Source of the DNA: Xanthomonas floridensis
GTDB lineage: Bacteria > Pseudomonadota > Gammaproteobacteria > Xanthomonadales > Xanthomonadaceae
Direction of reading: 5' to 3'
Assembly: GCF_001642575.1 (NCBI RefSeq)
Contig: NZ_LXNG01000010.1
Coordinates: forward strand, 62,001 to 126,000
DNA length: 64,000 nucleotides
The notes under the pieces were generated by a model. That model ran no database searches and was not told where the DNA came from. It saw nothing but the letters and a program-made list of their open reading frames with translations. Both the position numbers and the translations under genes were made by a program. This document shows, one piece after another, positions 29,643-47,752 of this stretch. Within the stretch, counting starts at the first letter, position 1; each line of letters opens with the position of its first letter.

Positions 29643-29757
29643 GGCGTGCCCAGCGGCGCGCGATGGATGTGCACGCCACATCGCCCAGGTCCGCAGCACA
29701 GCGGCGGACAGCCGGCACCGCTCGTACGGCGCGGCCACCGCCTATCGATCCGCGCGC

Positions 29758-31673: not shown

Positions 31674-31685
31674 CGAGCTCTCCAC

Positions 31686-32528: not shown

Positions 32529-32795
32529 GCATCGCCTCCCACACCTGTCCTGCTGAACTCACGGCACTCTCCGGACGCGGAGCCGCCACTGCGGCATCGC
32601 TTGATAGACCCGTGAGTGCCAGCGCCCGCCGGTTTGGTTGCAGGCGCGTCGGCACACAGATGTGGGGGATCGTCTGCAAACCGCAGCAATTGACTGGCAC
32701 CCGGCGCACTCACGAAAGCAGCGGTCATGCGACAGGCATGCGCACCGCAGCCTTGCCGAGCGCTGGCCCCAAGCGCCGAGCTGCAACAGCCGATG

Positions 32796-33644
32796 TCAGG
32801 CGACCGCCGCCGACGTTGCCACCCCGCGACGGCGCCAGGCATTGCGCAGTACCGCCACCAGCACCCCCAGCCCCGCACCACCGAGCAGACCGAGCGCACC
32901 CACCATCGCAGTATTGGGAAATGCGCGCTGCTCTGGCACAAACACCGGCCAGGCCAACGAGGTCTGATAGGTATAGCGATCGGTCAGCCGCGCAACCAGA
33001 TCGTCGCGCTCGGTCTTGATCGCGCGGATGGTGGTGTTGCTTTCGGTCAGCAGCACACCGGCCAGTACCTGCGCCGGGCTCGTCGCTCCACCCTGCCCGG
33101 CGTCGAGTTGCCGTTGCAGCTGTTCGCGGTTGCGCGTGGCAACACGCAGGTCCTCGCTCAGCCCCTGCAGACGGGTTCGAGCGAGCACGAGCGCGGTGGT
33201 ATTGGTGTCGCCATGCAGGCGTTTCAGCGTGTCCACCGTCGCCATGGCCAGGCGGCGCGCCTGCTGCGACGAATCGGCACGGATGGTGATGCCGATCAGG
33301 TTGGCATATGGGTCGGGATCGGGCTTGAGGCTGCCGCGATACAGCTGCGCGGCGCGGCTCTTGAGCGGCACGCCGGCCCGCTGCAGCACCGCATCCTGAA
33401 ACAGCCGCGTCTTCATGCGGTCGATTACGCGCTGGAACGGCTCGACCTTCGGATCGCGGCCTGCCGGCGTCGGGCCGATCTCACCCACCTGGATCCATGC
33501 AGTGGCTTCCCACTGTGGTTTGGCCACGCGCAGGAACACAACGCTGAGCCCCACGACCACGACGAACGCGGCCAGCGCCCAGCGCCATTCGCGGCGCAGG
33601 ATGCGCCACAGGTCGATCAGATAGATTTCGTCGTGTTGATTCAT
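32796..33644 (-). CDS. Wzz-type chain-length regulator
   Basis: The 282-residue protein starts MNQHDEIYLIDLWRIL, has a membrane segment at about 18-37, a long periplasmic part with a coiled coil (about 140-190) and a second membrane segment at about 243-265. This is the Wzz/PCP-1 layout for polysaccharide chain-length control. There is no C-terminal tyrosine kinase domain. The conserved Pro-rich stretch before the second membrane segment is short (AWPVFVPEQ). The longer frame to 33740 is not used. It lies 40 bases after the polymerase gene. Confidence 0.88.
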   Translation of the reverse strand: MNQHDEIYLIDLWRILRREWRWALAAFVVVVGLSVVFLRVAKPQWEATAWIQVGEIGPTPAGRDPKVEPFQRVIDRMKTRLFQDAVLQRAGVPLKSRAAQLYRGSLKPDPDPYANLIGITIRADSSQQARRLAMATVDTLKRLHGDTNTTALVLARTRLQGLSEDLRVATRNREQLQRQLDAGQGGATSPAQVLAGVLLTESNTTIRAIKTERDDLVARLTDRYTYQTSLAWPVFVPEQRAFPNTAMVGALGLLGGAGLGVLVAVLRNAWRRRGVATSAAVA

Positions 33645-33684
33645 GGTGCGCAGGCTCTGCAACAGGAGGATGGAATCGCCGCGT

Positions 33685-34818
33685 TCACGCGGCAGACGGA
33701 TAGGCCGCGTGGCGGTTGGGCAACAGCACGGTGCAGGCATGCAGCACCAGGCACAGCGCGATAAAGCCGAAGTTGGTCCAGGTAAAGGCCTGTGGCGCGA
33801 ATGGCGACATCAGGCACGCGTAGGCCAGGCGCAGGAAGATCAGCACGTGGAAGATCGACAGCGATCCGTTGAGCCGCCGCACGCTCCACACCAGCCCCGC
33901 ATACAGCGCCAGCAGCGCCAGCAAGGCGCCCGGCGCGCCCCAGGCCATCAGGAACGGGAAAAACTCGGTACCCACATTGATATTGGGCGCGTCCAGCGGA
34001 ATGCTGGTACCGGCGGTGGCGATGGAGCCGCTGAATGGCACCAGCTGGTTGATCAGGAAGCTGGCGTTGAGGTAACCCTTGGCCAGCATCGCGCCGAAGT
34101 TGTACGGCCCGGCACTGATGTACAGCAGCAGCCACTGCACGCCTTGCGGCATGGCGCGATAGAACGCGCCAAACGGCAACGCCACCGTGGCCAATGAGCC
34201 CGAACGCAGCGCGCCCAGCACCGAAAACACCCCGCCGCCGGCCAGCATCAGCACGCCGATCGTCTTCCACGGCAGCCGGCGCACCGGGTCGCGCCGTAGC
34301 AGCATCACCAGCACAAAAGAGAACAAACCGGCAAAGATGCGATTACGGTCGATCACCACGATCGGAAAGACGAATCCAAACACCACCATCGCCGCACGCA
34401 AGCCACGATGGCGCACGCAGAGCAGCGCAATCGGCGGCAGGATCCAGCACATGTTGGAGATATGCCGCACATGCGAGCGCAGCGGGCTCAAGGTGGCATA
34501 CGAAGACGGATCGCTGAACAGCGGAATCGGAAACAGCATCACGTCGGCGATGCAGAACAGCGTGACCACCGCGGCCAGCGTCATCGCCAGAAAAGCGTCG
34601 CGGGTGCCTGCATAGCGATAGCTGCGGAACTGCTCCACCGCCGGCAACCGGGTCCGCAGGAGCACGTCCAGCACGATCGTGGTCGCCGCGGCCATGGCCA
34701 GCACTACGATGCCGTCCAGGTAGCCATCGGGCAACCTGTAGGTCACCACCGTCACCGCGCTGCTGAGCAGCATCGGCAGCGCCAGATACGTCGCAGGACG
34801 TCGCAACAACGCACTCAT
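33685..34818 (-). CDS. Wzy-like O-antigen/polysaccharide polymerase
   Basis: The 377-residue protein is mostly hydrophobic, with about ten to eleven membrane segments and a larger periplasmic loop (about 230-290, containing SAGPYNFGAMLAKGYLNASFLINQ). Wzy polymerases have little sequence identity, so the call rests on topology and position between Wzz-like, GT2 and Wzx genes. It would join repeat units at the periplasmic face. Its ATG and the GT2 stop overlap by 4 bases. Confidence 0.8.
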   Translation of the reverse strand: MSALLRRPATYLALPMLLSSAVTVVTYRLPDGYLDGIVVLAMAAATTIVLDVLLRTRLPAVEQFRSYRYAGTRDAFLAMTLAAVVTLFCIADVMLFPIPLFSDPSSYATLSPLRSHVRHISNMCWILPPIALLCVRHRGLRAAMVVFGFVFPIVVIDRNRIFAGLFSFVLVMLLRRDPVRRLPWKTIGVLMLAGGGVFSVLGALRSGSLATVALPFGAFYRAMPQGVQWLLLYISAGPYNFGAMLAKGYLNASFLINQLVPFSGSIATAGTSIPLDAPNINVGTEFFPFLMAWGAPGALLALLALYAGLVWSVRRLNGSLSIFHVLIFLRLAYACLMSPFAPQAFTWTNFGFIALCLVLHACTVLLPNRHAAYPSAA

Positions 34819-35765
34819 GCCGGCTCCGTCGCGCTGCGCGCCTGCCTGGATCGCACGCGGGCCGGCAGACAGAGCCAGGCGTAGGCCAGCAGGTGTGCGA
34901 TCACCGCATGCGGGCGACGTTGCAGGAACGCGACCTTTGCAGCGATGTAGCGTGCCTGTGCGCGCAGCAGGCTGCGCTCAGGATCCTCGAACAGCCCCGC
35001 ACAGCGCAGCGCCACCTGTCGTGACTCGGAGAGATTGGCGATACGCGCCGGCACATTCACCGTCTTGCTGAGGTTGCTGCCGTGCAGCCGGTACGCACAG
35101 ACCTGCATGTCCACGAAACCCAACGCGTCGCGCGCGGCCAGCCGTAGAAAGAAATCCCAGTCCTCGATCCGCAGCGACTCGTCCCAACCGGTGCGTGCGT
35201 CGAATGCACTGCGTCGCAACAAGGCGACCGCGCCGCTGACCGCCCAGTGCCGGATCACCGCACGACGGATTCCGGATGCCGACCGATACAGATCCACCTC
35301 CACATGATGCAGATCGCGCATGGCGCTGGCATGCAACAGCTGTCCATGCTGGTCGACCACGCAGGCATCGCCGATCACCGCCAGTTTCTGCGGATGCGCG
35401 CGCAGGTAGCGCACCTGTGCATCCAGCCCGCCGGGCATTAGATAGTCGTCACTGGCACCCAGGCGCAGATACTCGCCGTTGGCACGCAACGCCAGCTCGT
35501 TGAGCGTGGCCGCCACCCCGCGGTTGGGTCGCTGCACGAACTGCACCGGCACGCGCTGCCCGTTGGCGGCGATCCATTGAGCGATCCGTTCGCCAGTCGC
35601 ATCGCTGGAGCCATCGTCGACGATCACGATCTCTTTGCACGGATACGGGTCTTCCAGCACGCTGTCCAGGCACCGCTGCACGAAGCGCTCATGGTTGTAT
35701 GCAGGGATCAGCACCGACACCAGCGGCCAGCGGGCACGCCCCGGCGCTTGCGCATGCGCGCTCAT
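34815..35765 (-). CDS. glycosyltransferase family 2
   Basis: The 316-residue GT-A protein starts [20 protein letters not shown] and has the GT2 motifs VSVLIPAYNHERFVQRCLDSVL, EIVIVDDGSSDATGERI and EYLRLGASDDYLMPGGLD, the last supplying the DD metal-binding pair. The catalytic region includes IEDWDFFLRLA. It is an inverting transferase acting in the cytoplasm on the lipid-linked repeat unit. Its ATG overlaps the flippase stop by 4 bases. The longer frame to 36068 overlaps the flippase and is not used. Confidence 0.91.
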   Translation of the reverse strand: MSAHAQAPGRARWPLVSVLIPAYNHERFVQRCLDSVLEDPYPCKEIVIVDDGSSDATGERIAQWIAANGQRVPVQFVQRPNRGVAATLNELALRANGEYLRLGASDDYLMPGGLDAQVRYLRAHPQKLAVIGDACVVDQHGQLLHASAMRDLHHVEVDLYRSASGIRRAVIRHWAVSGAVALLRRSAFDARTGWDESLRIEDWDFFLRLAARDALGFVDMQVCAYRLHGSNLSKTVNVPARIANLSESRQVALRCAGLFEDPERSLLRAQARYIAAKVAFLQRRPHAVIAHLLAYAWLCLPARVRSRQARSATEPA

Positions 35766-37015
35766 GCCGGCTGCACCAGGTAGCGGCGCACCACCACGAT
35801 ATTGAACAGCAAATACAGGACATAGTTGGCCGCGAACGCATACATCGCGCCGACCAGCCCGAACCGCGTGGTGAACACGTACACCAAGCCCAGGTAACTG
35901 GCTGCGAAGACGCATTCGGACACCACGAACAGACGCGTCATCGCCTTGGCCAGCATCAGATACGACAGCACGAACGCCGCGATCTTGATGACGTCGCCCA
36001 CCAGCTGCGCGCCATACAGCGACCTGGCCGCAGTGAACTGCGGATCGAACAGCAGCCATGTCACCCAATCGCGGCAGACATACACGCCCAGCGCCATCAC
36101 GATCACCGACGGCATGACATACCGATACGCGGCACGCAGCTCACGCGCCAGTGCCGCACGTTCGTGCAGGGCGGCCAGCTTGGGCAGGTAGTACACGTTG
36201 ATGGCGGTGGTGAAGAACAGCAGGTACGCGTCCGACACCCGGCTCACTGCCTGCCAGTACCCCACCTGTTGCCATCCGAACCGGGCGACCAGATGGTCGC
36301 GCACCAGCATGATCACCAGTTGCGGCACCAGCGTGGAGGTGAGCGTCATCACCGAGAACGCCGCCAGCCGCCGCGTCATCACCGCATCGAAGCGCATGCG
36401 CAACATCTCGCGCCGAAAGTACGGACTGCGCCGCAGCGCCGGCACGCCGGCCAGCAACCAGAGCACCTGCCCCAGCACCAGACCCAGCAGGGCACCCTGC
36501 AGCTGTGCCCTGCTGGACAGCCACGCCACCAGCGCAACGCTCAGCACCGCACCGCTCACCTGCACCAATGCCAGGCGCCGCACGTCCATGAAGCCGTTGA
36601 TCACCGCGAGCAGGTAATTGACCACCGCGATGCCCAGTTGCGCGACCGCCAGCACGCAGATCAGCGGCTGGTAGCTGGCATCGCCGAGCAGTCGCTCGGC
36701 AAGCGCACCACTGAACACCACCGCCAGCAGCGCGAGCAGGCAGGACGCGCAGAAGGCGTACCACAGTGCTGCGCCCAGCAGCCGCGCCTGCGCCTGCGGA
36801 TCGTCGCGATACTCGGCCACATACTTGACGATGCCGGCACTGATACCGCCACCGGCCAGGACCGCGAGCACCGACATCAGGTTGAGGAACTGCCCGAGCC
36901 TGCCCACTCCCTGCGGACCGGCGTAGATGGCCACCAGCTTGACCACCACCAGCGCAGCGAGCAACTTCGCCAACGTCGCAACGCCGGTGTATGCGCTGCT
37001 GCGCAGCAGGTTCAT
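35762..37015 (-). CDS. Wzx-type oligosaccharide flippase
   Basis: The 417-residue protein starts [23 protein letters not shown] and has about twelve membrane segments with the MOP/MATE-like pattern of WzxE relatives ([40 protein letters not shown]). It flips lipid-linked repeat units to the periplasm. The frame is open to 37210, but that part overlaps the aminotransferase and is not used. Both ends overlap neighbours by 4 bases. Confidence 0.9.
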
Positions 37016-38124
37016 GCGCGGGCGCCGAAGGTCTGGCAAGCGGCAATCACCCGGTCCACCGACGCTGCATCCAGCGCCGGACCCATTGGCAGGCTCAGCA
37101 CTTCGCGATGCAACTGCTCGCTCAGCGGCAGGCAGGCATCTCCCAGGGTGGCGTACGCCGGCTGCCGGTGCGGCGGCACCGGATAATGGATCTGGGTATG
37201 AATGCCACACTGCAGCAGATGCGCCTGCAAGGCATCACGCTGCGCACTGCGCACCACGAACAGATGCCACACATGCTGTTCGCCGGAGGCCACTGCCGGC
37301 AGCATGATCAACGGGTTGTCGATCTCCTGCAGATACCGCTGCGCCACCGCACGCCGCAACGCAATCTCCTCGTCCAGATAGGCCAGTTTGACCCGCAGCA
37401 AGGCGGCCTGCAGCTCGTCCAGGCGCGAATTCACGCCCTGATGCAGGTGGTGGTATTTCACCTCCGAACCGTAGTTGCGCAGGGCGCGGATGCGCTCGGC
37501 CAGGCGCGTATCGGAGGTCACCACGGCACCACCATCGCCGAGTGCCCCGAGATTCTTGGTGGGGAAGAAACTGAAGGCGGCCGCATCGCCAAAGGCACCG
37601 GCGCGCGTTCCGCGCGCAGTGGCGCCGTGTGCCTGCGCGGCGTCTTCGATCACTAACAGCCCGTACCGGTGCGCCAGTGTCTGCAGCGCTGCCATATCGG
37701 CCAGCTGGCCATACAGATGCACTGCCATGATGGCGCGCGTGCGCGGACCGATTGCCCGTTCGACACGTGCCGTATCCAGGTTGAAGGTTGCCGGGTCCGG
37801 CTCCACCGGCACCAGCACCAGCTGGTTCTGGCTGATCGCCAAAAACGTGGCGATGAAGGTATTGCCGGGCACGATGATTTCGTCGCCCTCGCGCAACACG
37901 CCCAGTTCGCGATACCCACGCAGGATCAGCGACAGCGCATCCAGCCCGTTGCCCACGCCAACTGCATGCGCAGCGCCGCAATAGCGGGCGAATTCATCCT
38001 CAAACGCGGCCAGCTCCTGGCCAAGCACATACCAGCCGGCATCGATCACGCGCGCGGCCGCGGCCTTGAGCTCGTTCGCGTAGCGCGCGTTGGCCGCACG
38101 CAGATCCAGGAAAGGCACGTCCAT
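37012..38124 (-). CDS. fdtB: dTDP-3-keto-sugar 3-aminotransferase (DegT/FdtB-like)
   Basis: The 370-residue DegT/DnrJ/EryC1/StrS enzyme starts [20 protein letters not shown]. The PLP lysine is in [16 protein letters not shown], and EDAAQAHGA and the [16 protein letters not shown] segment complete the family. Presence of an FdtA/WxcM-like isomerase at 40670 in the same operon points to an FdtB/QdtB-type role, making dTDP-Fuc3N or dTDP-Qui3N. ATG at 38124 overlaps the upstream TAA by one base (TAATG); a start at 38136 is possible. Confidence 0.9.
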
Positions 38125-39056
38125 TACAAGGTCCATCGATAGAAGTCCTGTACAACCGCACGCGCGCCGAAGCGCTCCTTCTGTTCCACCAGGCCCTCGT
38201 TGAGCACCTGCCCACCCTGCTCGGTGGAAATCCCGAAACTGAAGTAATCGCGCCCTGCGTAGACTTGCGTGATCAGCTCGGCCAGCAGCAGGCTCAGCGC
38301 ATCCAGCCGGCGCCCCGGCTCGGAGACGGCCAGATACTGGGTGTGCACACTGCGACCGAAGTCATACATCAGCGCCGCTGCCAGTAACTGCGTGTCCACG
38401 CGCGCTTCGTGCAGCACGATGTGGTGTGGAAACCGACGCTGCAGCAGTTGCAGTTCGTCCAGCCGGTGGGTGGGTGCCACGCCGTGGCGCTGCAGCACCT
38501 CGGTCAGCAATGCGTGGAACGCATCCAGGGCGCTGCTGGTCTGGATCTGCACGCCGGCTTTGCGTGCCTTGGCGATCGACCGACGGCGCTCGGCACTGAA
38601 GGCAAACGGCTGGCGCAGCGCGATCACCGAGGACAGGTCGCGCCGATACACCCGCGCGCCCACGCGATGCAGGGCGTACAGTTCCTCTTCGGCCGGGTAC
38701 GCATGGAAGACATGCGGCACCGGCTTGTAAACGATTTCCTGCGCGCCTGCGGCTCGGTAATGCGTGGCAATCTGCTCGAACACCTGCAAGGTCGCACCGG
38801 CCCGCATCGCCATCGACGACACCAGGCCGGCATAGGTGAGTCCGGCATGGCTGCTGACGCAGCCGCCCTGCATGCTCGCAGGAAACACCGCAATCACCTC
38901 GCCACCGCGTTCCACCAGCAACGACGCATCCACGAAACGGTCGGCGTGATAGTCCATGTAGCCACGCCGATGCAACAGGTTGCCGTTGCGCGAACTCGCC
39001 ACCAGTGCGTCCCACGCAGACGCATCGCCGGCACGATAGGGCCTAACCGAATACAT
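38124..39056 (-). CDS. GNAT/FemAB-like acetyl- or aminoacyltransferase
   Basis: The 310-residue product has two halves of GNAT fold, as in FemAB-like proteins. It starts [22 protein letters not shown], then [32 protein letters not shown], and the second half has [31 protein letters not shown] and [19 protein letters not shown]. Such proteins (GNAT family in polysaccharide loci) acylate amino sugars. It could therefore acylate the 3-amino sugar made by FdtB, a role also possible for the hexapeptide transferase at 40002. It overlaps the preceding gene by 14 bases. Confidence 0.8.
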
Positions 39057-39996
39057 GGCAGCCCTGCAGTTCCACCGGCAGCGCCGCATCGGCCAGGCCA
39101 AAGCCGGCATGCCCCATCGCATTGCCGTTGTAGAACATCAGCACGCGCTCGCCCTGCTGGATCAACGCGGGGTAGCACAGCGTCTGCGCATCCCAGCCCT
39201 GCGCGGACAGCCGCAGCCCGAGCTGCCCATCGTCGCGCTCCCAGTGCAGGCCATCGCGGCTGAAGGCGATGCCGGGGAAGTAGCCACCGAGGGTGTCGCC
39301 GCGGGTGAAGTACATCAGGTAACGCTCGCCAAGCCGGTACACGCGCGGGCGGCCGATACGGTATTCGTCGCCGCTCGGACGCAGGCAGACATGATCGTCG
39401 CCGGAGATGCAGGCCAGGTCGTCGGTCTCCGCATAGCGAATGTGGTAACGCGGATACGGCCGGCCCGCGATGATTTCCCAGTCATCGCCCACCGCATACC
39501 ACAGCCGCCAGCGCCCATCTTCGTACCGTGCAGAATGCACTGCGGCAATCGTGCTGCGGCCGGGTGCGCGGTCCAGCAGCGGCGTCTCCTGGCGGCGCTG
39601 AAACGTACTGCCGCCATCGCGCGATACCGCCAGGCCGGTGAACGCCAGAAATTTCGCCTTGGCCACGCGCTGGAAGCCCACGTAGAACATGTACAGACCA
39701 TCCGGCCCGGCCACGACATCGCCCAGGATCATGCCGTTGTCGTCGAAGCAGCCATCGCGCCCGATATCCAGCACCGGTTCCCGGCTGACACCGACAACCT
39801 GGGTGGGCGCATCGGCACGCACATCCACATAGCCGATCCGGCTCACGCCATGCGCATCGCGGAAGCCTGCATACACCCGCAGGATCTGCGCAGACAGGCG
39901 GTACGGCGTCGGCGTCAGTGCCGCATGCTGCATCCAGCCGCCAACGCCATCGCGTGCCACATCGAAGACCAGGCCGCGCTTGATCCATTCGAACAT
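39043..39996 (-). CDS. GH43-like five-bladed beta-propeller protein
   Basis: The 317-residue protein starts MFEWIKRGLVFDVARDG. Repeated blade-like segments fit a glycoside hydrolase 43/32-like propeller: GDVVAGPDGLYMFYVGFQR, GLAVSRDGGSTFQR, YEDGRWRLWYAVGDDWE, IAFSRDGLHWERDDGQ and LIQQGERVLMFYNGN. No signal peptide is visible, so it is probably cytoplasmic. A catalytic triad cannot be assigned safely. Proteins of this kind occur in polysaccharide operons with unknown function. The longer frame to 40359 is not used because it overlaps the next gene. Confidence 0.75.
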   Translation of the reverse strand: MFEWIKRGLVFDVARDGVGGWMQHAALTPTPYRLSAQILRVYAGFRDAHGVSRIGYVDVRADAPTQVVGVSREPVLDIGRDGCFDDNGMILGDVVAGPDGLYMFYVGFQRVAKAKFLAFTGLAVSRDGGSTFQRRQETPLLDRAPGRSTIAAVHSARYEDGRWRLWYAVGDDWEIIAGRPYPRYHIRYAETDDLACISGDDHVCLRPSGDEYRIGRPRVYRLGERYLMYFTRGDTLGGYFPGIAFSRDGLHWERDDGQLGLRLSAQGWDAQTLCYPALIQQGERVLMFYNGNAMGHAGFGLADAALPVELQGCHVFG

Positions 39997-40001
39997 GGCT
40001 T

Positions 40002-40673
40002 TCAAAGCTCCACGTCGACACTGGACCGGCCGGCCACCGCGCGTGCCGGCGAACCGACATAGACGCGGCCGGCTTCGGTGTTCCGGGTCACCAGTGCCCC
40101 GGCGCCGATGATGTTGTCTGCAGCAATGCGTACCTTGTCGCTGAGCGTGGCGTTGACGCCGATGAAGCTGCCCTGCCCGATGTCGCAATATCCGGAAATC
40201 ACTGCATGCGAGGCAATGAACACGTGCTCCTGCACCACGGTGCGATGACCGATATGGTTGCCGCTCCACAGAATGCAGTTGTCGCCGATGCGGGTGAACG
40301 GCTGGATGACATTGCCTTCGAAGATAAAGCAGTTGGCCCCGACCTGCGCATTGCGCCACACGAAGGCGCGCGAGCTGACGTAGCTGGCACAGCAGTAGCC
40401 GCGTTGCACCATGTCCTGATAGAACCGCCTGCGCAGGCGGTTCAACTGGGTGGCGGGAATGGCGACGAACACCTCGTACTGGGCAGGCGGATACCGTTGT
40501 TCAAGTTCTTCATAAGCCACCACCGGCAATTCGCCCAGCGTGGGCCGCAGCAGATAATCGCGCTCCACGCTGAAGGCCACCACCTCGTAGTCGCTATCGT
40601 GCTGGAAGTATTCGCAGGCGATCTGTGCGAACTCGCCTGCGCCGACGATCACCAGCGGTTTGCGCGCGCTCAT
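40002..40673 (-). CDS. NeuD/PglD-like sugar O- or N-acyltransferase (left-handed beta-helix)
   Basis: The 223-residue protein has an N-terminal Rossmann-like half (LVIVGAGEFAQIACEYF) and a C-terminal hexapeptide repeat helix (NAQVGANCFIFEGNVIQPFTRIGDNCILW, HVFIASHAVISGYCDIGQGSFIGVNA). The catalytic histidine is probably His in SGNHIGH. This is the PglD/NeuD/FdtC layout, so N-acetylation of the dTDP-3-amino sugar is the natural role next to FdtA and FdtB. It overlaps the fdtA-like gene by 4 bases. Confidence 0.88.
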   Translation of the reverse strand: MSARKPLVIVGAGEFAQIACEYFQHDSDYEVVAFSVERDYLLRPTLGELPVVAYEELEQRYPPAQYEVFVAIPATQLNRLRRRFYQDMVQRGYCCASYVSSRAFVWRNAQVGANCFIFEGNVIQPFTRIGDNCILWSGNHIGHRTVVQEHVFIASHAVISGYCDIGQGSFIGVNATLSDKVRIAADNIIGAGALVTRNTEAGRVYVGSPARAVAGRSSVDVEL

Positions 40674-41107
40674 GCTTCCAGCCTGCGGTCTTGGATGCAG
40701 TGTTCGCCACGCACTTCGCTCAGGAACTGGTCGTAATCCAGGATGTAATCGCCCGGATCATAGAAGTGGTCGGCCAGCACCATCAGCACGCAGTCGGGGC
40801 TGAAGTGGTGCAGGTCGCGCCATACCATGCGGCCCAGCAGCAGTCCTTGCGATGGGTCGTCCAGGCGTACCTCGGTCGGGCCATCACCCTTGCCGTCGTC
40901 CAGCAGAATCGTCACCGAGCCATGCAGGGCCACGGCCAGTTGATTGAGCTGCCGGTGCGCGTGCTGGCCACGATGCACGCCATCGCGGGTGCCGAACAGG
41001 TAGTACACGCGACGTATCTCAAACGGGACATTGCGCTGCTGCTCCAACGAAACGAGCAAGCCGCGATCGTCGCCGTGGATATGCAACTGGATGGGTTCGA
41101 AGGCCAT
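40670..41107 (-). CDS. fdtA: dTDP-6-deoxy-3,4-keto-hexulose isomerase, FdtA/WxcM family
   Basis: The 145-residue cupin protein has the family pattern VPFEIRRVYYLFGTRDGVHRGQHAHRQLNQLAVALHGSVTILLDDG (written in full only as signature positions 28-73: key HRGQHAH). FdtA/WxcM/QdtA move the keto group of dTDP-4-keto-6-deoxyglucose from C4 to C3, so FdtB can then aminate C3. The start at 41107 (MAFEPIQLHIHG) gives the family length. It is the first gene of the leftward operon. RmlA and RmlB, needed to supply substrate, are not in this window. Confidence 0.92.
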   Translation of the reverse strand: MAFEPIQLHIHGDDRGLLVSLEQQRNVPFEIRRVYYLFGTRDGVHRGQHAHRQLNQLAVALHGSVTILLDDGKGDGPTEVRLDDPSQGLLLGRMVWRDLHHFSPDCVLMVLADHFYDPGDYILDYDQFLSEVRGEHCIQDRRLEA

Positions 41108-41421
41108 GATCGGATGGACGTAACCACTGACTGCACGTAGTGCGACATGCCTGAGTGCGCCGGGATGCGCGAAAGGTTGCGCGGCGTCATGGCCCTGCGA
41201 AGCCGCGTCCGCGCAAGCGCAGCAGCCGGTGCTCCGCCTCATCGACTACGCAGCGGTGCGATAAAAATTCGTTGGCGCGATGCAACCTTTCATCGGCATC
41301 GCCGCACATATCGGTGCACGTTCACCTGGCCGCCGCTGTTGGCCGGCGTGGGGAGCCAGGCCTGGCAGCGCACTGCGAACTGCCGGAACCAACGACCACC
41401 ACCGGTGAGGACACCGACCAG
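41108..41421. other. divergent region between fdtA and cytochrome b561
   Basis: These 314 bases separate the leftward polysaccharide operon from the rightward redox genes, so promoters for both should lie here. It contains the reverse complement of the 14-base motif at 41277-41290 and a shorter aaaggttgc match at 41171-41179. Reading leftward, ttgcat (41286-41281) is followed, 15 to 16 bases later, by an AT-rich atttttatc stretch (about 41270-41259), a weak sigma-70-like promoter for fdtA. Confidence 0.45.
41277..41290 (-). promoter_or_regulatory. second copy of the 14-base motif
   Basis: On the minus strand this reads aaaggttgcatcgc, identical to 24068-24081. It sits about 170 bases upstream of the fdtA start, in the promoter region of the operon. 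Confidence 0.35.
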
Positions 41422-42042
41422 ATGCGTTCATCCCCCCAGGCGACCGACCCGGCAGCCACTGCCAGCGCCCCCGCGCTGCCACTGCCGGAACAGACCGCGC
41501 CAGCCGCGCGCGTCGTTCCGCTGCCCAAATCCATGCGCGTGCTGCACTGGCTGACGGTGCTGTGCCTGGTAATGGCGGCCACCTTGATCCTGTTGCGCGC
41601 CGAGCTGGATGGACGCGCACTGCGCCAATGGCTGCTGGAAGGCCATCGCCATTTCGGCCTGATGGTGCTGCTGTTGTTCGTGCTGCGGGTGGGCCTGCGC
41701 CTGCGGCTGCGCCGGCTGCCGCCCGGCCCGCCTGCAGCGCTGCTCATGCGTCTGGCCGCCGGCGGCACCCATCTGGCGATGTACGGGCTGATGCTCGCGC
41801 TGCCGCTGATCGGCTGGTCGCTCAGCAACGCCTTCGGCAAGACGGTCTATCTGTTCGGCCTGGCCCTGCCCAACCTGGTGGAGGCCGACGCAGACCTGGG
41901 CGACACCCTGGGTGCCTGGCATCTGAATGCCGCCTGGGCGTTGCTGGCCCTGGTGCTGGTGCACATCGGCGCCGCGCTCTGGCACCACCTGGTACTGCGT
42001 GATGGCCTGCTGCGCCGCGTGTTGCCGGGCAAGCGCGCATGA
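41422..42042 (+). CDS. cytochrome b561 family membrane protein
   Basis: The 206-residue protein has a 35-residue polar N-terminus and four membrane segments at about 39-58, 77-95, 113-133 and 165-188. Candidate heme-b ligands are His42 (VLHWLTVL), His75/His77 (EGHRHFG), His117 (GGTHLAMYG), His167 and His181. This is the layout of di-heme quinol-oxidising b561 proteins. It probably passes electrons from quinol to a periplasmic carrier. The TGA overlaps the next frame's alternative ATG at 42039. The start at 41422 is chosen with ggtgagg upstream; the frame is open from 41155. Confidence 0.88.
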   Translation: MRSSPQATDPAATASAPALPLPEQTAPAARVVPLPKSMRVLHWLTVLCLVMAATLILLRAELDGRALRQWLLEGHRHFGLMVLLLFVLRVGLRLRLRRLPPGPPAALLMRLAAGGTHLAMYGLMLALPLIGWSLSNAFGKTVYLFGLALPNLVEADADLGDTLGAWHLNAAWALLALVLVHIGAALWHHLVLRDGLLRRVLPGKRA

Positions 42043-42102
42043 GTCCTCGCACCTCCCCCGCCCTGGCCCGCTCTTCCTCCGTTGAACCCCGCACCGTCGA
42101 AC

Positions 42103-42107
42103 AAGGA
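42103..42107 (+). promoter_or_regulatory. ribosome-binding site deciding the cytochrome-porin start
   Basis: AAGGA lies 6 bases before the ATG at 42114. It favours that start, which opens directly into a signal peptide, over the ATG at 42039, which overlaps the b561 stop codon. Confidence 0.7.
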
Positions 42108-42113
42108 CTTTCC

Positions 42114-43460
42114 ATGCCTATCTCCCAGCCTGCTTCGCGCCGTGCCAACGCATCGCGCACCGCCTCCCTGACGTCCTTGTTATGCGTGTCCGGCCCGTTA
42201 CTGCTGCTGGCCAGTACGCAGGCACAGGCGATTCCCTCGTTCGCCCGCCAGACCGGTTCTTCGTGCGCGGACTGCCATATCGGCTCCTACGGTCCCTCGC
42301 TCACGCCCTACGGCATGCGCTTCAAGCTGGGCGGCTTCACCGATACCAATGGCGAGGGCACCAAGATTCCGGTGTCCGGCCAGCTCACCTGGGCGCGCAG
42401 CAATCCCAGCCGCGGCGACAGCACCGCGCGGCTGACCCAGGCCGACCTGTATCTGGCCGGCCGGGTCAGCGACAACGTGGGCGGTTACTCCAAGATCCGC
42501 TCCAACAACAGCGGCAACGCCACCTTCGATACGCGCCTGGACGATGTGGATCTGCGCGTTGTCAGCAAGCCGTTCGAAATGGCCGGCAAGGACACCATGA
42601 TCGGTGTCAGCGTCAACAATAATCCGGGCATTTCCGACCCGATCCACGTGTTGCCCAATGCCTCCACGCTGACCCCGGCTTCCAACGGCGGCGCGTCCAC
42701 CATGCTCAGTTCCTCGTCGCTGTCCAACCGCGTGATCGGCGCCAGCGTGTACGGGCTGTACGACAAGAACTGGTATGGCGAAGTGGGCAGCTATAGCGCC
42801 TTGTCGCCCTCGGCGCAGGACCGCCTCGGCTGGCCGATCAACGGCGACCCGGGCAAGCTCAGCGACACCAGCTATGCGCGCCTGGCCTACATGAAGGACA
42901 TGAAGCGGCAGTTCTTCTCGGTGGGCCTGACCGCGCTCAATACGCGGCGCCAGCGTCCGCGTAACGGGCCCAGCGACGACCTGACCGACTTCGGTTACGA
43001 CCTGACCTATCAGTTCCTCGGCACCCGCGAGCATGTGCTGTCGCTGGCCTACGTGAACATCTACGAGCGGCGCAAATACGGCAGCCCGCTGGTATCGGCC
43101 GACCCGACCTTGCCGGTACTCGACCGCGGCAGCGTGCGTGACCAGACCATCAGCATGAACTACGCGTTCAAGCAGACCTACGGCGTTCTGGCCGCGCACA
43201 TGATCAACAGCGGCTCGTTCGATGCGGCGCGCTATCTGCCGGTGGGCATTCCCGACACCACCAGCAACCTGATCCTTCTGTACTGGACCCCGTTCGGCAA
43301 GGACGGCACCTACACCTCGATCGCCAACCTGCGCCTGTCGGCTGGCTGGTTCCGTTTCGACAAGTTCAACGGCAGCACGTCCAATGTGTTCGGCGGGCCG
43401 CCGCTCACCAATCCGCGCGATCTCAACAGCTTCACGATGTCGGTCAACCTGACGTTCTGA
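42114..43460 (+). CDS. fused monoheme cytochrome c and outer-membrane beta-barrel protein (Cyc2-like architecture)
   Basis: The 448-residue product has a signal peptide (cleavage after AQA, about residue 39), then directly IPSFARQTGSSCADCH with a single CXXCH heme site (Cys51, Cys54, His55). The remaining about 390 residues alternate hydrophobic and polar residues in a beta-barrel pattern and end in VNLTF, the C-terminal Phe signature of outer-membrane barrels. This resembles the Cyc2 fused cytochrome-porins of iron oxidisers and the wider group of FARQTG-CXXCH proteins in proteobacteria. It may move electrons across the outer membrane. Neighbours (b561, cytochrome c, ccm operon) fit. Substrate is unknown. 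Confidence 0.82.
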   Translation: MPISQPASRRANASRTASLTSLLCVSGPLLLLASTQAQAIPSFARQTGSSCADCHIGSYGPSLTPYGMRFKLGGFTDTNGEGTKIPVSGQLTWARSNPSRGDSTARLTQADLYLAGRVSDNVGGYSKIRSNNSGNATFDTRLDDVDLRVVSKPFEMAGKDTMIGVSVNNNPGISDPIHVLPNASTLTPASNGGASTMLSSSSLSNRVIGASVYGLYDKNWYGEVGSYSALSPSAQDRLGWPINGDPGKLSDTSYARLAYMKDMKRQFFSVGLTALNTRRQRPRNGPSDDLTDFGYDLTYQFLGTREHVLSLAYVNIYERRKYGSPLVSADPTLPVLDRGSVRDQTISMNYAFKQTYGVLAAHMINSGSFDAARYLPVGIPDTTSNLILLYWTPFGKDGTYTSIANLRLSAGWFRFDKFNGSTSNVFGGPPLTNPRDLNSFTMSVNLTF

Positions 43461-43495
43461 CCTCCCCCACGCTGCACGCAACCGTACGGACCCAC

Positions 43496-43927
43496 ATGCA
43501 TCCATTCAACAAGACCCTGATGTGCGCTTCGCTGGCCGGCCTGCTGCTGGCCGGCACCACCCTGGCGACCCCGGCACGTGCCGCCGATGGCAAGAGTGTG
43601 TTCACCACCGAATGCGCCGAATGCCACAGCGCCACCCAAGGCAAGAACAAGAAGGGCCCTTCACTGTTCGGCATCGTCAACCGCATCCCTGGCAGCGTTG
43701 CTGATTTCAGCGGCTACTCGCCTGCGCTCAAGAGCTATTCGGCCGTCCTCAAGAGCCGTTCGGCGGACCCGGCGTCGAGCAAGGGCGCTTGGGACGCAAA
43801 CAGCCTGAAGGCCTTCCTGAAGCAGGACTCCAAGACAGCCCTGCCCGGTACCAAGATGAAATACGAGGGCCTGGAAGACGCAGACGAACTGAACGCACTG
43901 ATCACCTACCTCAACACCTTGCACTGA
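43496..43927 (+). CDS. periplasmic class I cytochrome c
   Basis: The 143-residue product has a signal peptide (cleavage after ARA, about residue 29) and a class I cytochrome c fold: heme site Cys40, Cys43, His44 (CAECHS), KGPSLFGIVNR, and Met121 in LPGTKMKYEGL as the probable sixth ligand. It should be soluble in the periplasm and carry electrons between the inner membrane and acceptors. Starting 35 bases after the fused cytochrome-porin gene, it is likely co-transcribed and a natural partner of it. Confidence 0.92.
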   Translation: MHPFNKTLMCASLAGLLLAGTTLATPARAADGKSVFTTECAECHSATQGKNKKGPSLFGIVNRIPGSVADFSGYSPALKSYSAVLKSRSADPASSKGAWDANSLKAFLKQDSKTALPGTKMKYEGLEDADELNALITYLNTLH

Positions 43928-44433: not shown

Positions 44434-45132
44434 ATGCGGTTGCGCCGGGGCCTGCTGCTCGCGCTGATGGCCAGCCCCTGCGGCAGCGCACTGGCGGACA
44501 ACCTGGGCGGCGCGGTCGCGGTCGCCTCGACCCTGATCGACCGCGGCATCTCCATCGCACCCAATCGCGTCACCCTGCAGGCGGCCGGCTACTGGCTGCC
44601 GGCACCCGGCTGGTCGATGTCGGCCTCCGCGGCGCTGCAATCGCCCTCCTTCAGCAAGCCGGTGGCGCTCACGTTGCAGGGCGCGCGCGGCTGGATGCTG
44701 GGCGACCGCTGGCAACTGCAGGCCAGCCTGCTGTATTACGCCTACCCGGCCGACCGCCAGTCGCGCACCTTCGACCGCCAGGAAGCCAGCCTGGCCTGGT
44801 CCTACCGCGACATGCTCACCTTCTCGCTGTCCACCTTCAATTTCCCGCGTGCGCAACGCTCGCCCTGGAACAAGGTGATCGATGTCACCGCCAGCGTGCC
44901 GCTGTCGGCCAGTTTCAGCCTCTCGGCCGGTGCTGGCGTCTCGGACTTTCCGGCCATGACCTACGGTGCCCCGAGTTCCGGCCGCTATCGGTATGGGCAA
45001 CTGGGCCTGAAGTGGAACCACGCCGCGTGGACCGTGAAGCTGGACCGGGTACTGACCAGCAGCAACACCCCGCGCGCGCAGGGCGGCCCCGGCGAAACGC
45101 CGTGGGTGGGCATGGTGTCGCGCGCGTTCTGA
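44434..45132 (+). CDS. predicted outer-membrane beta-barrel protein, TorF-like
   Basis: The 232-residue product starts MRLRRGLLLALMASPCGSALADNLGG, a signal peptide with ALA cleavage near residue 21. The mature part begins LGGAVAVASTLIDRGISI, resembling the TorF (TIGR02001-type) putative porin family, and alternates in a barrel-like pattern to a C-terminal Phe (MVSRAF). Function unknown. No heme motif is present. The frame is open from 43789, but this start uniquely opens a signal peptide. Its position next to the cytochromes suggests a role in outer-membrane traffic. Confidence 0.72.
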   Translation: MRLRRGLLLALMASPCGSALADNLGGAVAVASTLIDRGISIAPNRVTLQAAGYWLPAPGWSMSASAALQSPSFSKPVALTLQGARGWMLGDRWQLQASLLYYAYPADRQSRTFDRQEASLAWSYRDMLTFSLSTFNFPRAQRSPWNKVIDVTASVPLSASFSLSAGAGVSDFPAMTYGAPSSGRYRYGQLGLKWNHAAWTVKLDRVLTSSNTPRAQGGPGETPWVGMVSRAF

Positions 45133-45139
45133 TCCAACC

Positions 45140-45148
45140 GCAACCTTT
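45140..45148 (-). promoter_or_regulatory. aaaggttgc motif upstream of the ECF sigma gene
   Basis: On the minus strand this reads aaaggttgc, the first 9 bases of the 14-base motif at 24068 and 41277. It lies 36 bases before the sigma factor start. Chance matches of 9 bases are expected, so this is weak. Confidence 0.2.
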
Positions 45149-45149
45149 T

Positions 45150-45163
45150 GCCCGCTTGCGGGC
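45150..45163. terminator. short perfect inverted repeat before the sigma factor
   Basis: Six-base arms 45150-45155 and 45158-45163 with a 2-base loop lie 18 bases after the barrel gene's stop and 21 bases before the sigma factor ATG. With no U-tract it may be a weak terminator or a regulatory site. Confidence 0.35.
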
Positions 45164-45183
45164 ACCTAGACGTGTCCTCTGCC

Positions 45184-45777
45184 ATGCCTGCTTCGATGAA
45201 TGACTCCGACACCCTCGGCGATGCCACCGATCGCATGCTGCTGCGCCGCATGGCAGCGGGCGATCGCGACGCCCTGGCGAGCATGTACCACAGCTACCAC
45301 GGTCGGCTCTGCCGGTTCCTGTCGCGCCTGACCCGCCGGCCGGACATCATCGAAGAGGCCATCAACGACTGCTTCTGGATCGCCTGGCAGAAGGCCGGCG
45401 ACTTCCGCGGCGATTCGCAGGTGTCCACCTGGATCATGGGCATCGCCTACCGCTGCGGGCTCAAATGCCTGCGCCAGCACGACGGCGAGGCCATCGACGA
45501 CACCGCCGTGGTGGAAGACCACGCCCCCAGCACCGACGACGGCGACGACCGCGAGCTGCGCGACTGGCTGGACAAGGGCATGGAGCGGCTGTCGCCGGAC
45601 CAGCGCCTGGTGATCGAACTGGTCTACGGCGTCGGCCACAAGCTGGAAGAGGTCGCCGACATCATGCAGTGCCCGGTGGGCACGATCAAAGCCCGGCTGT
45701 TCCACGCCCGGGTCAAATTACGCAATGTGCTGCCCGGCCTGGCCGGCAGCGCTCCTTACACGGAGACCCTGCAATGA
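45184..45777 (+). CDS. ECF RNA polymerase sigma factor
   Basis: The 197-residue protein is an extracytoplasmic-function sigma-70 factor. Region 2 starts near ADRDALASMYHSYHGRLCRFLSRLTRR and includes the -10-binding EEAINDCFWIAWQKAGDFRGDSQVSTWIMGIAYRC segment (key WIAWQKA...STWIMGIA). Region 4 is SPDQRLVIELVYGVGHKLEEVADIMQCPVGTIKARLFHARVKL, here noted by its landmark VGTIKARLFHARV. The stop overlaps the anti-sigma ATG. Starts at 45184 and 45196 are both possible. It probably drives its own operon, but I cannot identify its promoter. Confidence 0.9.
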   Translation: MPASMNDSDTLGDATDRMLLRRMAAGDRDALASMYHSYHGRLCRFLSRLTRRPDIIEEAINDCFWIAWQKAGDFRGDSQVSTWIMGIAYRCGLKCLRQHDGEAIDDTAVVEDHAPSTDDGDDRELRDWLDKGMERLSPDQRLVIELVYGVGHKLEEVADIMQCPVGTIKARLFHARVKLRNVLPGLAGSAPYTETLQ

Positions 45778-46424
45778 AGACGTTTTTCATCGCGCCTGGC
45801 AAGGAATGCTCGCACGCCTGGGAGCTGATGCCAGCTGTCTTGCTGGATAGCGCCACCGAGGAAGAGAGTACCTGGCTGATCGCGCACGTGGCCAAATGCG
45901 CCTCCTGCGGCGCCGAGTTCGCCCAACAGAACCGACTGCGTCAGGCGCTGGCATTGCCGTGCGCGGTCAAGCTCGACCCCAACGCCGGATTGCAGCGCCT
46001 GCTCGGACGCCTGGACGCGCCCGAACAGCGCATCGCGCCGCCGCCGGCCGCCCGCCGCTCCGGCAGCTGGACGGTGCGCGCCCTGGCCGCCGCTGCATTG
46101 GTACAGGCCATCGGCCTGGGCGTCATGGGCGTCAAGCTGGCTTCGCCGACGCCGTCGCACGACTACCGCACACTCAGCAGCGCCACCGCGTTGCCGGTGC
46201 CGCAAGGCGCCATCCGCGTGGTGCCCGACGCCAGCATGACCGTGGCCGACTGGGATCGGCTGCTGCATGCGCAGCAGTTGCAGGTGGTGGGCGGACCCAA
46301 CGACATGGGCGCTTACACGGTGGTGCCTGCCGCACCGCAGCCGCCGGCCCAGCCACAGCAGACCGTGCAGCAACTACGCGCCAATCCGGGCATCCGGCTG
46401 GCCGAGATCGTCTCCGCCCCATGA
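45774..46424 (+). CDS. anti-sigma factor with zinc-finger-like N-terminus
   Basis: The 216-residue protein has an N-terminal cytoplasmic part with the ZAS-like pattern IAHVAKCASCGAEFAQQ (His and two Cys), a single membrane segment at about 101-122 (ALAAAALVQAIGLGVMGV) and a periplasmic C-terminal part with Pro-rich tail. This is the usual design of anti-sigma factors that hold an ECF sigma factor until a periplasmic signal. ATGA overlap with the sigma gene and with the following protease gene indicates balanced synthesis. Confidence 0.85.
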   Translation: MKTFFIAPGKECSHAWELMPAVLLDSATEEESTWLIAHVAKCASCGAEFAQQNRLRQALALPCAVKLDPNAGLQRLLGRLDAPEQRIAPPPAARRSGSWTVRALAAAALVQAIGLGVMGVKLASPTPSHDYRTLSSATALPVPQGAIRVVPDASMTVADWDRLLHAQQLQVVGGPNDMGAYTVVPAAPQPPAQPQQTVQQLRANPGIRLAEIVSAP

Positions 46425-47752
46425 ACCGTCTGTTCGCCATCGGCCTGGTCGCCGCCTTGCTTGGCACGGGCCTGCAGGGCACCGCGCAGGCCGCCGCTGC
46501 CCTGCAGGACACCGCGCAAACCGCTGCCGCCGGCACCGCGCCGGCAGCCGCTGCCACCGGTGCGCACACGCCCGACAGCAGCCGCGACATCCTGCTGGCA
46601 GTGGCCAACCCGCTCAGCGCACCGCCGGCCCGCGCCGGCTCCAGCCTGATCGGCTATGCCTCCAGCTATTACGGCGCCGGCCAAAAGGCGGCCGTGCGCA
46701 TGGAAGCCATCAAGCAGCGTTACAAGCTGCGCGAAGTGTCCGGCTGGCCGATCACCTCGCTGGGCCTGTATTGCGCCGTGCTGCAACCACCACCGGGCGT
46801 GTCGCGCGATGAGCTGGTCAGCACCCTGGCCAACGCCGAAGGCGTGGAGCTGGTGCAGCCGGTGCAGGATTTCTCGGTGTTTTCGGCCGATGCGGCGGAA
46901 AAGACCACGCCGTTGTCTGGCTACAACGACCCGTACGTGGACATGCAGCGCGGCTTCATCGACACCGATGCGGCCAGCGCCCAGGCTGTCACCCAGGGCC
47001 GCGGTGTGGTGGTGGCGGTGGTCGATACCGGCGTGGACACCGCCCACCCCGATCTGAAGGCGCGCATCCGCGAGGTACACGACCTGGTCGACGACAAGCC
47101 GGTCATGACCAGCAGCGATTCGCACGGCACCGAAGTGGCCGGGATCATCGCCGCCGGCAGCAACAACCATCAGGGGATCGTCGGCATGGCGCCCAAGGCC
47201 ATGCTCAACATCTACAAAGCCTGCTGGTATGCGCCCACCGTCGGCGCCACGGCACGCTGCAATACCTTCACCCTGGCCAAGGCGCTGGCGGCAATCAACA
47301 ACAGCTCCGCGCGTGTGGTCAACCTGAGCCTGGGTGGGCCAGCCGATCCGCTGCTGAGCAAGATGCTCATCCATCTGGTGCAGCAGGGCCGCATCGTGGT
47401 GGCCGCCATGCCACCCAATGGCCGGCTGGATGGGTTTCCCAATGATGTGCCGGGCGTGCTGGTGGTGCGCAGCAGCAGCGCCAGCGCGGCCATGCCCGGC
47501 GTGCTGAGCGCACCCGGCAAGGACATCCTGACCACGCAGCCGAACGGCCGCTACGACTTTACCTCCGGCTCGTCGATGGCCACCGCGCATGTCAGCGGCA
47601 TGGCCGCGCTGCTGCTGTCGCTGTCGCCTTCCATGGATGCCAGTGCGTTGCGCGAGCTCCTGCAGCGCACCAGCAAGGTCTCCGACGGCCAGTTGCAGGT
47701 CAACGCCGGCGCCGCAGTCGATGCGCTGTCGCCTTCCAGACATTCCAACTGA
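46421..47752 (+). CDS. subtilisin-like serine protease, peptidase S8
   Basis: The 443-residue protein has a signal peptide (cleavage near residue 24), an N-terminal region with possible pro-domain features (about 75-150), and an S8 catalytic domain: Asp202 in VAVVDTGVDTAHPDL, His235 in SDSHGTEVAGI, the oxyanion Asn in the VVNLSLGGP neighbourhood or later, and Ser385 in TSGSSMATAHVSGMAA. It is probably periplasmic or exported. It is translationally coupled to the anti-sigma gene, so it may process the anti-sigma factor or be its regulated output. Such sigma/anti-sigma/S8 protease operons are known from other proteobacteria. Confidence 0.88.
   Translation: MNRLFAIGLVAALLGTGLQGTAQAAAALQDTAQTAAAGTAPAAAATGAHTPDSSRDILLAVANPLSAPPARAGSSLIGYASSYYGAGQKAAVRMEAIKQRYKLREVSGWPITSLGLYCAVLQPPPGVSRDELVSTLANAEGVELVQPVQDFSVFSADAAEKTTPLSGYNDPYVDMQRGFIDTDAASAQAVTQGRGVVVAVVDTGVDTAHPDLKARIREVHDLVDDKPVMTSSDSHGTEVAGIIAAGSNNHQGIVGMAPKAMLNIYKACWYAPTVGATARCNTFTLAKALAAINNSSARVVNLSLGGPADPLLSKMLIHLVQQGRIVVAAMPPNGRLDGFPNDVPGVLVVRSSSASAAMPGVLSAPGKDILTTQPNGRYDFTSGSSMATAHVSGMAALLLSLSPSMDASALRELLQRTSKVSDGQLQVNAGAAVDALSPSRHSN

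What the first reader, a model, noticed from the sequence alone, without database searches (positions are those of the whole stretch)
41422..43927. Candidate outer-membrane electron conduit: cytochrome b561, fused cytochrome-porin and cytochrome c
Seen: a four-helix His-rich b561 protein, then a 448-residue protein with signal peptide, one CXXCH heme site and a barrel-like remainder ending in Phe, then a soluble CXXCH cytochrome c, all in one direction with gaps under 75 bases. Known: Cyc2 of iron oxidisers is a fused monoheme cytochrome-porin. Inference: quinol to b561 to cytochrome c to outer membrane, or the reverse, giving metal or redox chemistry at the cell surface in a bacterium not known for it.
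Basis: partly seen in the sequence, partly recalled or inferred. Interest (0 to 1): 0.75.

Follow-up and report, generated by a model that had tools for sequence, protein, structure and literature searches.

The report
Sigma-controlled heme-porin electron conduit
A plant-associated Xanthomonas carries a three-gene set that looks built to pass electrons through its outer membrane, using a distant relative of the iron-oxidising protein Cyc2, and the set appears to be switched on together with a surface-sugar gene cluster by one dedicated regulator.

Summary
Window 41422-43927 holds a cytochrome b561, a 448-aa fused monoheme cytochrome-porin (FCP) and a class I cytochrome c, co-directional, with gaps of 71 and 35 bp. 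The FCP carries the published Cyc2 motif exactly (AIPSFARQT before CADCH), and two AlphaFold models give 16 long strands; the heme domain is modelled poorly. The Cyc2 comparison holds as homology; Xanthomonas sequences were already among the Cyc2 homologs of Keffer et al. 2021. In trees the FCP sits in its own lineage, apart from an FCP near a rusticyanin-like gene and COX1, and from a Zetaproteobacteria-like group. Its lineage goes with a mitochondrial/c2-like cytochrome c and, in one subclade, b561.

The new result is regulatory. A two-box promoter, GCAACCTT-N14-GCAC, lies before b561, before the divergent polysaccharide genes, before the ECF sigma gene (RpoE4/XAC1682 ortholog by gene order) and before an HprK-like gene. 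In 12 genomes, 30 of 40 matches lie at the FCP locus, 8 more within 27 kb on its contig, 2 elsewhere. I read it as a sigma-controlled electron conduit between the quinone pool and the surface, induced with a polysaccharide. Direction, substrate and sigma binding are not shown. It is a new variant of a known kind.

The parts
41282..41310 (+). ECF-type promoter-like site, GCAACCTTT-N13-GCACATA, before b561-FCP-cytochrome c
   Evidence: a site before b561 in 55 of 66 loci
41152..41180 (-). divergent site, GCAACCTTT-N13-GCACTCA, before the polysaccharide genes
   Evidence: 57 of 64 loci
41422..42042 (+). cytochrome b561 (inner-membrane, quinone-side module by family)
   Evidence: PF01292 E 1.2e-21; nearest solved structure 5OC0, E. 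coli cytochrome b561, E 4.9e-17
42114..43460 (+). Cyc2-like fused monoheme cytochrome-porin (FCP)
   Evidence: motif and CXXCH; 16-strand models; porin fold matches
43496..43927 (+). class I, mitochondrial/c2-like cytochrome c with KNKKGPSL motif
   Evidence: PF00034; profile hits cyt cy, cyt c, cyt c2
44434..45132 (+). small protein with a weak TorF/Gcw_chp (putative porin) match below cut-off
   Evidence: TIGR02001 E 9.3e-7, 28.6 bits against cut-off 47.15
45140..45168 (+). promoter-like site before the sigma gene (autoregulation inferred)
   Evidence: 50 of 65 loci
45196..45777 (+). ECF sigma factor, ortholog of RpoE4 (XAC1682/XCC1665/XC_2566) by gene order
   Evidence: PF08281, PF04542 (on the longer frame from 45148); order against XAC1679 CcmC; start 45196 from coding bias
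45774..46424 (+). zinc-finger anti-sigma factor
   Evidence: PF13490 E 3e-5, 24.4 bits against 22.2
46421..47752 (+). S8 (subtilase) protease with signal-like N-terminus
   Evidence: PF00082 E 1.5e-37
27406..41107 (-). polysaccharide genes (FdtA, hexapeptide acyltransferase, GNAT, DegT aminotransferase, WzxE-like flippase, glycosyltransferases; some genes between unassigned, polymerase not identified)
   Evidence: PF05523, PF00132, PF13480, PF01041, PF01943, PF00535, PF00534; flippase 309.1 bits against WzxE cut-off 325; gene calls from coding bias
24048..24076 (-). fourth site, before an HprK-related gene and an ABC transporter gene
   Evidence: same gene downstream in 5 of 5 distal sites examined, the window's own included
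21177..24018 (-). HprK-related kinase-like gene and ABC transporter gene
   Evidence: HprK-like matches below cut-offs; ABC_tran PF00005 68.2 bits, above cut-off 25

Best explanation
The three genes encode a trans-envelope electron conduit: the ubiquinone pool exchanges electrons with b561 in the inner membrane, the c2-like cytochrome c carries them across the periplasm, and the Cyc2-like FCP, an outer-membrane barrel with a single c-type heme near its periplasmic end, exchanges them with a small dissolved redox partner that enters the barrel from outside. The conduit is an inducible accessory: the ECF sigma factor encoded just downstream drives its own operon, the conduit operon and two polysaccharide/export operons, so conduit and surface polysaccharide are made together. 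Shown by sequence: gene content, conserved linkage, promoter-like sites. Inferred: heme attachment, barrel insertion, that this sigma reads those sites, and the electron path. Direction is not shown; I lean outward (quinol to surface, reducing a soluble acceptor such as a metal complex or plant quinone) about 55 to 45, because the inner-membrane partner belongs to a quinone-linked family.
For: b561 in 66 and cytochrome c in 67 of 67 loci beside the FCP. Tree: a 22-row FCP clade (100/99) whose rows all have this cytochrome c gene next door (in L137 with two in-frame stops), holding a 15-row clade (95/96) with all b561-linked rows of the tree. In its sister clade one of six members (L072/L128) has a NapC/NirT quinol cytochrome gene (PF03264, E 1.9e-55) after FCP and cytochrome c: another quinone-linked family in the same gene run. 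G..FK after the heme in 117 of 117 FCPs. 16-strand models. Sites: among all 8-mers in 40 upstream regions the commonest were GCAACCTT (38 of 40) and CAACCTTT (36), then GGCACTCA (34); 163 two-box sites in 67 loci against a mean of 0.1 in ten mononucleotide shuffles, 1 of them away from the three promoters; in 12 genomes 40 matches, 30 at the FCP locus, 8 distal on the same contig, 2 elsewhere, reversed-pattern control 6.
Against: The heme domain has low model confidence and no heme was modelled. Foldseek TM-scores over the query are about 0.3-0.5. In five of six sister-clade loci (L126, L138-L141) my marker search found no quinone module, so it may be optional. A c2-like cytochrome c could as well feed a terminal oxidase (inward flow). 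The site is missing before b561 in 11 of 66 loci, fdtA 7 of 64, sigma 15 of 65, and the genome of L065 has none. No experiment links RpoE4 to these sites; Yang et al. 2018 report no virulence role for sigma factors other than RpoE1, RpoD and RpoH under their conditions (passage).
Confidence: 0.62

Rival explanations
1. A true Cyc2-type Fe(II) oxidase: dissolved Fe(II) gives electrons to the FCP, then to cytochrome c and a terminal oxidase (inward), for energy or detoxification.
For: Exact Cyc2 motif and 16-strand models; cytochrome domain homologous to a Zetaproteobacteria-like group, E 9.8e-19; c2-like cytochrome c usually donates to oxidases (recalled; profile hits); PMC10654088 links Acidithiobacillus Cyc2 in a similarity network to a dense cluster that includes Rhodanobacteraceae homologs (passage).
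Against: Own lineage apart from the FCP beside COX1, CtaA, SCO1 and a rusticyanin-like protein; no rusticyanin match in G000; a quinone-linked gene rather than oxidase genes in the operon; hosts are aerobic heterotrophs (taxa, physiology recalled); sites shared with polysaccharide genes.
Confidence: 0.2
2. A redox sensor rather than a conduit: the heme state of FCP or cytochrome c reports extracellular redox conditions to the anti-sigma/S8 protease, which releases the sigma factor.
For: Conserved neighbourhood with sigma, anti-sigma and protease and shared sites.
Against: b561-FCP-cytochrome c occurs with no sigma relative in the stretches fetched in L127, L137 and L144 and L065, so it seems to have a function of its own; the NapC gene in L128 suits electron transfer.
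Confidence: 0.08
3. b561 works alone as a superoxide oxidase like E. coli CybB (activity recalled), and FCP plus cytochrome c are a separate pair that shares the operon.
For: The only solved relative found is 5OC0, E. coli cytochrome b561; FCP plus cytochrome c occur without a recognised b561 in L067 and in the sister clade.
Against: The b561-linked FCPs of the tree form one clade (15 rows, 95/96) and the linkage holds in 66 of 67 loci.
Confidence: 0.08

Closest known systems
Cyc2 fused cytochrome-porins (Keffer et al. 2021, PMC8406198)
   Same: Signal-like N-terminus, single CXXCH, AXPXFAR[Q/K][T/Y] motif, PXL, over 365 aa, predicted 16-strand barrel.
   Different: Own lineage in the trees; b561 and a c2-like cytochrome c as neighbours; PXL after five residues (paper: 4 downstream); sites shared with a local ECF sigma gene; iron oxidation untested.
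MtrAB/MtoAB/PioAB porin-cytochrome conduits with CymA
   Same: Works like: inner-membrane quinone module, periplasmic cytochrome, outer-membrane porin. A b561-diheme fusion protein was noted in an operon after one mto operon (PMC5566968, passage).
   Different: One heme fused to the barrel, no decaheme cytochrome, smaller barrel.
E. coli cytochrome b561 (CybB), 5OC0
   Same: PF01292 fold; histidines aligned.
   Different: Operon partner of an FCP; superoxide activity untested.
Xanthomonas RpoE4 (XC_2566/XCC1665/XAC1682)
   Same: The sigma gene here by gene order.
   Different: I saw no promoter or regulon for it: 4 papers hold one of six tags, passages read in all four; 15 of 108 papers listed, one opened.

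Membership tests
Cyc2 | single CXXCH near the N-terminus of an exported protein of at least 365 aa | tested here: met
   448 aa, one CXXCH, signal-like N-terminus by eye; criteria from sections 5 and 12
Cyc2 | AXPXFAR[Q/K][T/Y] before CXXCH | tested here: met
   AIPSFARQT in the window; strict form in 60 of 117 other FCPs: 29 of 67 near kin, 31 of 50 others
Cyc2 | PXL about 4 residues after CXXCH | tested here: met
   PSL after 5 residues; PX[LI] in 116 of 117, spacing 5 in 77, 3 in 20, 4 in 12, 10 in 7
Cyc2 | 16-stranded barrel fused to the cytochrome | tested here: met
   16 strands in both models, strand regions mostly pLDDT 65-90; prediction only
Cyc2 | homology to Cyc2 of known iron oxidisers | tested here: inconclusive
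Cyc2 | place in one of FeGenie's three HMM clusters | not testable with these tools
   HMMs not held; outside the f39 clade in both trees
Cyc2 | iron-oxidation gene context (not part of the published definition) | tested here: not met
   no rusticyanin match in G000; neighbours are b561, cytochrome c, sigma; another FCP, L170, does have COX1, CtaA, SCO1 and a rusticyanin-like gene near
Cyc2 | Fe(II) oxidation | not testable with these tools
   needs biochemistry
Prokaryotic cytochrome b561 (PF01292) | score over gathering cut-off and heme histidines | tested here: met
   77.7 bits against 30.1; H42, H75, H167, H181 invariant in 18 of 18 and aligned to His of 5OC0; which His bind heme is recalled
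ECF sigma regulon of RpoE4 | shared promoter-like sites before target operons and own gene | tested here: met
ECF sigma regulon of RpoE4 | the sigma factor recognises these sites | not testable with these tools
   inferred from linkage only

The most novel reading that the evidence does not exclude
Xanthomonadaceae and Rhodanobacteraceae keep a dedicated regulon, four promoters in one island read by one ECF sigma factor, that builds a heme-porin electron conduit together with a surface polysaccharide: a matrix-linked extracellular electron transfer system in aerobic plant and soil bacteria that has nothing to do with iron respiration, and a function for one uncharacterised Cyc2 lineage.
Probability: 0.4. 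Interest if true: 0.82.

Novelty: new variant of a known kind. Interest (0 to 1): 0.64.

Why it matters
Keffer et al. [quoted passage not shown] Here one lineage gets a genetic handle: fixed neighbours and a compact set of promoter-like sites shared by cultivable genera. If the conduit is real, extracellular electron transfer is a regulated surface trait of common plant and soil bacteria, and genome scans that read Cyc2-like genes as iron-oxidation markers would need care.

Tried and rejected
Fur control: the best score to a recalled Fur consensus upstream of b561 was 9-12 of 19 in the 18 sequences printed, against mean 9.3 and maximum 12 in 200 shuffles. Sigma-70 promoters and terminators: none above chance. 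Rfam: 0 matches at gathering cut-offs in 12 kb. A solved relative of the FCP by sequence: none credible. A second FCP in the own genome: none at E 0.001. Met68 as distal heme ligand: R, I or V in 48 of 117 FCPs, so not general. A NiFe-hydrogenase small-subunit gene upstream of b561 in L137 was not taken as part of the system. Wider regulon: a looser pattern gave 10 sites in G000 against a control of 6, so only the four tight sites are claimed. Papers: Xanthomonas with Cyc2 and cytochrome, 5 papers; Xanthomonas with b561, 3 and 13 papers; Cyc2 with b561, 2 papers; inferred tags of the conduit genes (XAC1684-1686, XCC1667-1669), 0 papers; PMC12442345, none of six terms found; PMC4690215, one unrelated passage; PMC4045669, an unrelated marker name.

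Rows left out: A1 uses 52 of the 67 loci plus the window, A5 51 of 67, A3 17 of 66 (L060 dropped), A2 17 of 67. Both trees use 13 of the 67 named loci. Tree 1 has 63 rows, tree 2 has 55; L095 is in neither, L125 and 8 of 10 f39 rows are missing from the second. L094, L106-L108, L119 and L124 gave no FCP row in my ORF filter. Wide stretches were fetched for 40 FCP loci only.
Full report
WHAT IS THERE. The window lies in a 5.25 Mb genome (G000, contig 10) whose nearest relatives in the scan are Xanthomonas. On the + strand stand a cytochrome b561 (41422-42042), a 448-residue exported-looking protein with one CXXCH (42114-43460) and a small cytochrome c (43496-43927), with gaps of 71 and 35 bp. 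b561 and the cytochrome c are recognised by Pfam; the middle protein matches no Pfam or NCBIfam model at E up to 1.

THE MIDDLE PROTEIN IS A CYC2-LIKE FUSED CYTOCHROME-PORIN. Keffer et al. 2021 (PMC8406198; I saw the abstract, sections 5, 11, 12 and 13, and two passages) describe Cyc2 by AXPXFAR[Q/K][T/Y], CXXCH, PXL, a length of 365 aa or more and a 16-strand barrel. The window protein reads AIPSFARQT-GSS-CADCH-IGSYG-PSL. AlphaFold on 53 and on 52 aligned sequences gives mean pLDDT 69.5 and 73.7, and in both 16 strands of nine or more residues; the N-terminal heme domain stays mostly below 60 and a loop near residues 172-200 below 50. Foldseek finds outer-membrane barrels, OmpT of Vibrio first (E 2.7e-11), then general porins, AlgE, FadL and others, TM about 0.3-0.5 over the query; OprO 4RJW, which Keffer names as structural homolog, is at 3.9e-7. 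Profile against profile it matches a second group of FCPs at E 9.8e-19, over the cytochrome domain only. G..FK follows the heme in 117 of 117 FCPs, which makes that Lys a candidate for a heme contact (inference).

IT IS NOT A NEW PROTEIN FAMILY. [quoted passage not shown] PMC10654088 links Acidithiobacillus Cyc2 in a network to a dense cluster with Rhodanobacteraceae homologs (passage).

DISTRIBUTION AND LINEAGE. Profile A1 hits 81 of 398 genomes of the phylum, 54 of 369 of the class and 14 of 149 of the family at E 1e-6 or better. In trees of 63 and 55 rows the window falls in a 22-row clade (100/99 in both). Every row in it has the same type of cytochrome c gene beside it (C..CHS, KNKKGPSL or close), though in L099/L137 that gene has two in-frame stops. 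Inside it a 15-row clade (96/93, then 95/96) holds all b561-linked FCPs of the trees. In a sister clade of six, one (L072/L128) has a NapC/NirT quinol cytochrome gene after FCP and cytochrome c; in the other five my marker search saw no quinone module. Several FCPs elsewhere in the tree stand beside frames with two CXXCH. One FCP (L170/G647) has COX1 (E 8.4e-109), CtaA, SCO1 and a copper protein near it; the last matches rusticyanin at 137 bits, under the cut-off of 146.7. It falls outside the window's clade, as do the f39 rows.

PARTNERS. The cytochrome c profile finds cyt cy, mitochondrial cytochrome c and cyt c2, a type usually of high potential (recalled). b561 is closest to E. coli cytochrome b561, 5OC0, with H42, H75, H167 and H181 invariant in 18 of 18.

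THE ISLAND. In the 67 loci b561 is found in 66, cytochrome c in 67, the sigma gene in 65 and fdtA in 64. No sigma relative was found near b561-FCP-cytochrome c in L065 or in the stretches L127, L137 and L144, so the union with the sigma island looks secondary (inference). Minus-strand genes from 41107 down to 27406 include FdtA, a hexapeptide acyltransferase, a GNAT, a DegT aminotransferase, a WzxE-like flippase and glycosyltransferases; some genes between had no match.

THE PROMOTER-LIKE SITES. Aligning the region upstream of b561 in Xanthomonas showed a kept AAAGGTTGC and GCAACCTTT pair facing away from each other. In 40 further loci, mostly other genera, the commonest 8-mers of the upstream regions were GCAACCTT (38 of 40) and, as the next separate word, GGCACTCA (34 of 40). 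GCAACCTTT occurs 4 times in the window against 0.13 expected, 0 of 100 shuffles reaching 4: before b561, before fdtA, before the sigma gene, and at 24076 on the minus strand before an HprK-related gene. With the second box (GCAC after 14 bases) the 67 loci hold 163 sites against a mean of 0.1 in ten mononucleotide shuffles: before b561 in 55 of 66, fdtA 57 of 64, sigma 50 of 65, elsewhere 1. The two boxes are fixed by that search pattern; what it does not fix is that the third base after GCAC is A in at least 90 percent of the 25, 27 and 21 sites outside the Xanthomonas rows, while most of the spacer is below 65 percent. So shared descent alone is a poor explanation. In 12 whole genomes the pattern with GCACNNA occurs 40 times: 30 at the FCP locus, 8 on the same contig 14-27 kb off (5 examined, the window's own included, all before the HprK-related gene; 3 not examined), 2 elsewhere; one genome, that of L065, has none; the reversed pattern occurs 6 times. 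This is the look of a dedicated ECF sigma factor with four promoters. That the local sigma reads them is inferred from linkage and from the site before its own gene.

WHICH SIGMA. Yang et al. 2018 (PMC6085468; abstract, section 20 and passages) name XC_2566/XCC1665/XAC1682 RpoE4 and list no homolog in the four non-Xanthomonas genomes of their table. PMC2653504 gives CcmC as XAC1679 (passage). In the window the order sigma, anti-sigma, protease, ccmC puts the sigma exactly three genes from ccmC. I saw no regulon for it in print: four papers, passages read in each; 15 of 108 listed, one opened; 0 papers. Yang et al. saw no virulence role for sigma factors other than RpoE1, RpoD and RpoH under their conditions (passage).

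HOW IT MOST LIKELY WORKS. Ubiquinone pool, b561, cytochrome c, FCP, small extracellular redox partner. That one relative has NapC where others have b561, while cytochrome c and FCP stay, is what a chain coupled to the quinone pool would show; it rests on a single NapC case. Direction is open. Outward: a quinone-linked gene in aerobic heterotrophs, no oxidase genes in the operon. Inward: a c2-like cytochrome c is a good acceptor for a Cyc2-like heme (PV-1 Cyc2 208 mV, Keffer abstract). I lean outward at 55 to 45. As in Keffer's model (section 11) one heme at the periplasmic end means the outside partner must be small and dissolved.

LIMITS. 

Noticed in passing
L155:8873-13999 (+): Beside an FCP and a two-CXXCH frame lies an open frame of at least 1709 aa, running to the end of the fetched stretch, with 56 CXXCH motifs.
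   Followed up: no
L137, about 5340-5740 (-), genome G666: The cytochrome c gene after FCP has two in-frame TGA codons, one where relatives have the conserved Trp; decayed gene or unusual codon use, not decided.
   Followed up: partly
L137:7919-8869 (-): A NiFe-hydrogenase small-subunit gene upstream of b561-FCP with no room for a large-subunit gene between.
   Followed up: no
43496-43927: The window's cytochrome c has a 14-residue insertion shared in the alignment only with L025 (95% identical); L006 is 88%, the other five Xanthomonas rows aligned 51-74%; recombination of this gene is possible.
   Followed up: partly
L126:3168-6348, L127:8652-10719: FCP-cytochrome c units lie near what look, by ORF starts only, like two-component signalling genes.
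   Followed up: no
21177-27155: HprK-related gene, ABC transporter, B12-binding radical SAM and NTP_transf_5 genes beside the polysaccharide cluster; the first two follow the fourth site.
   Followed up: partly
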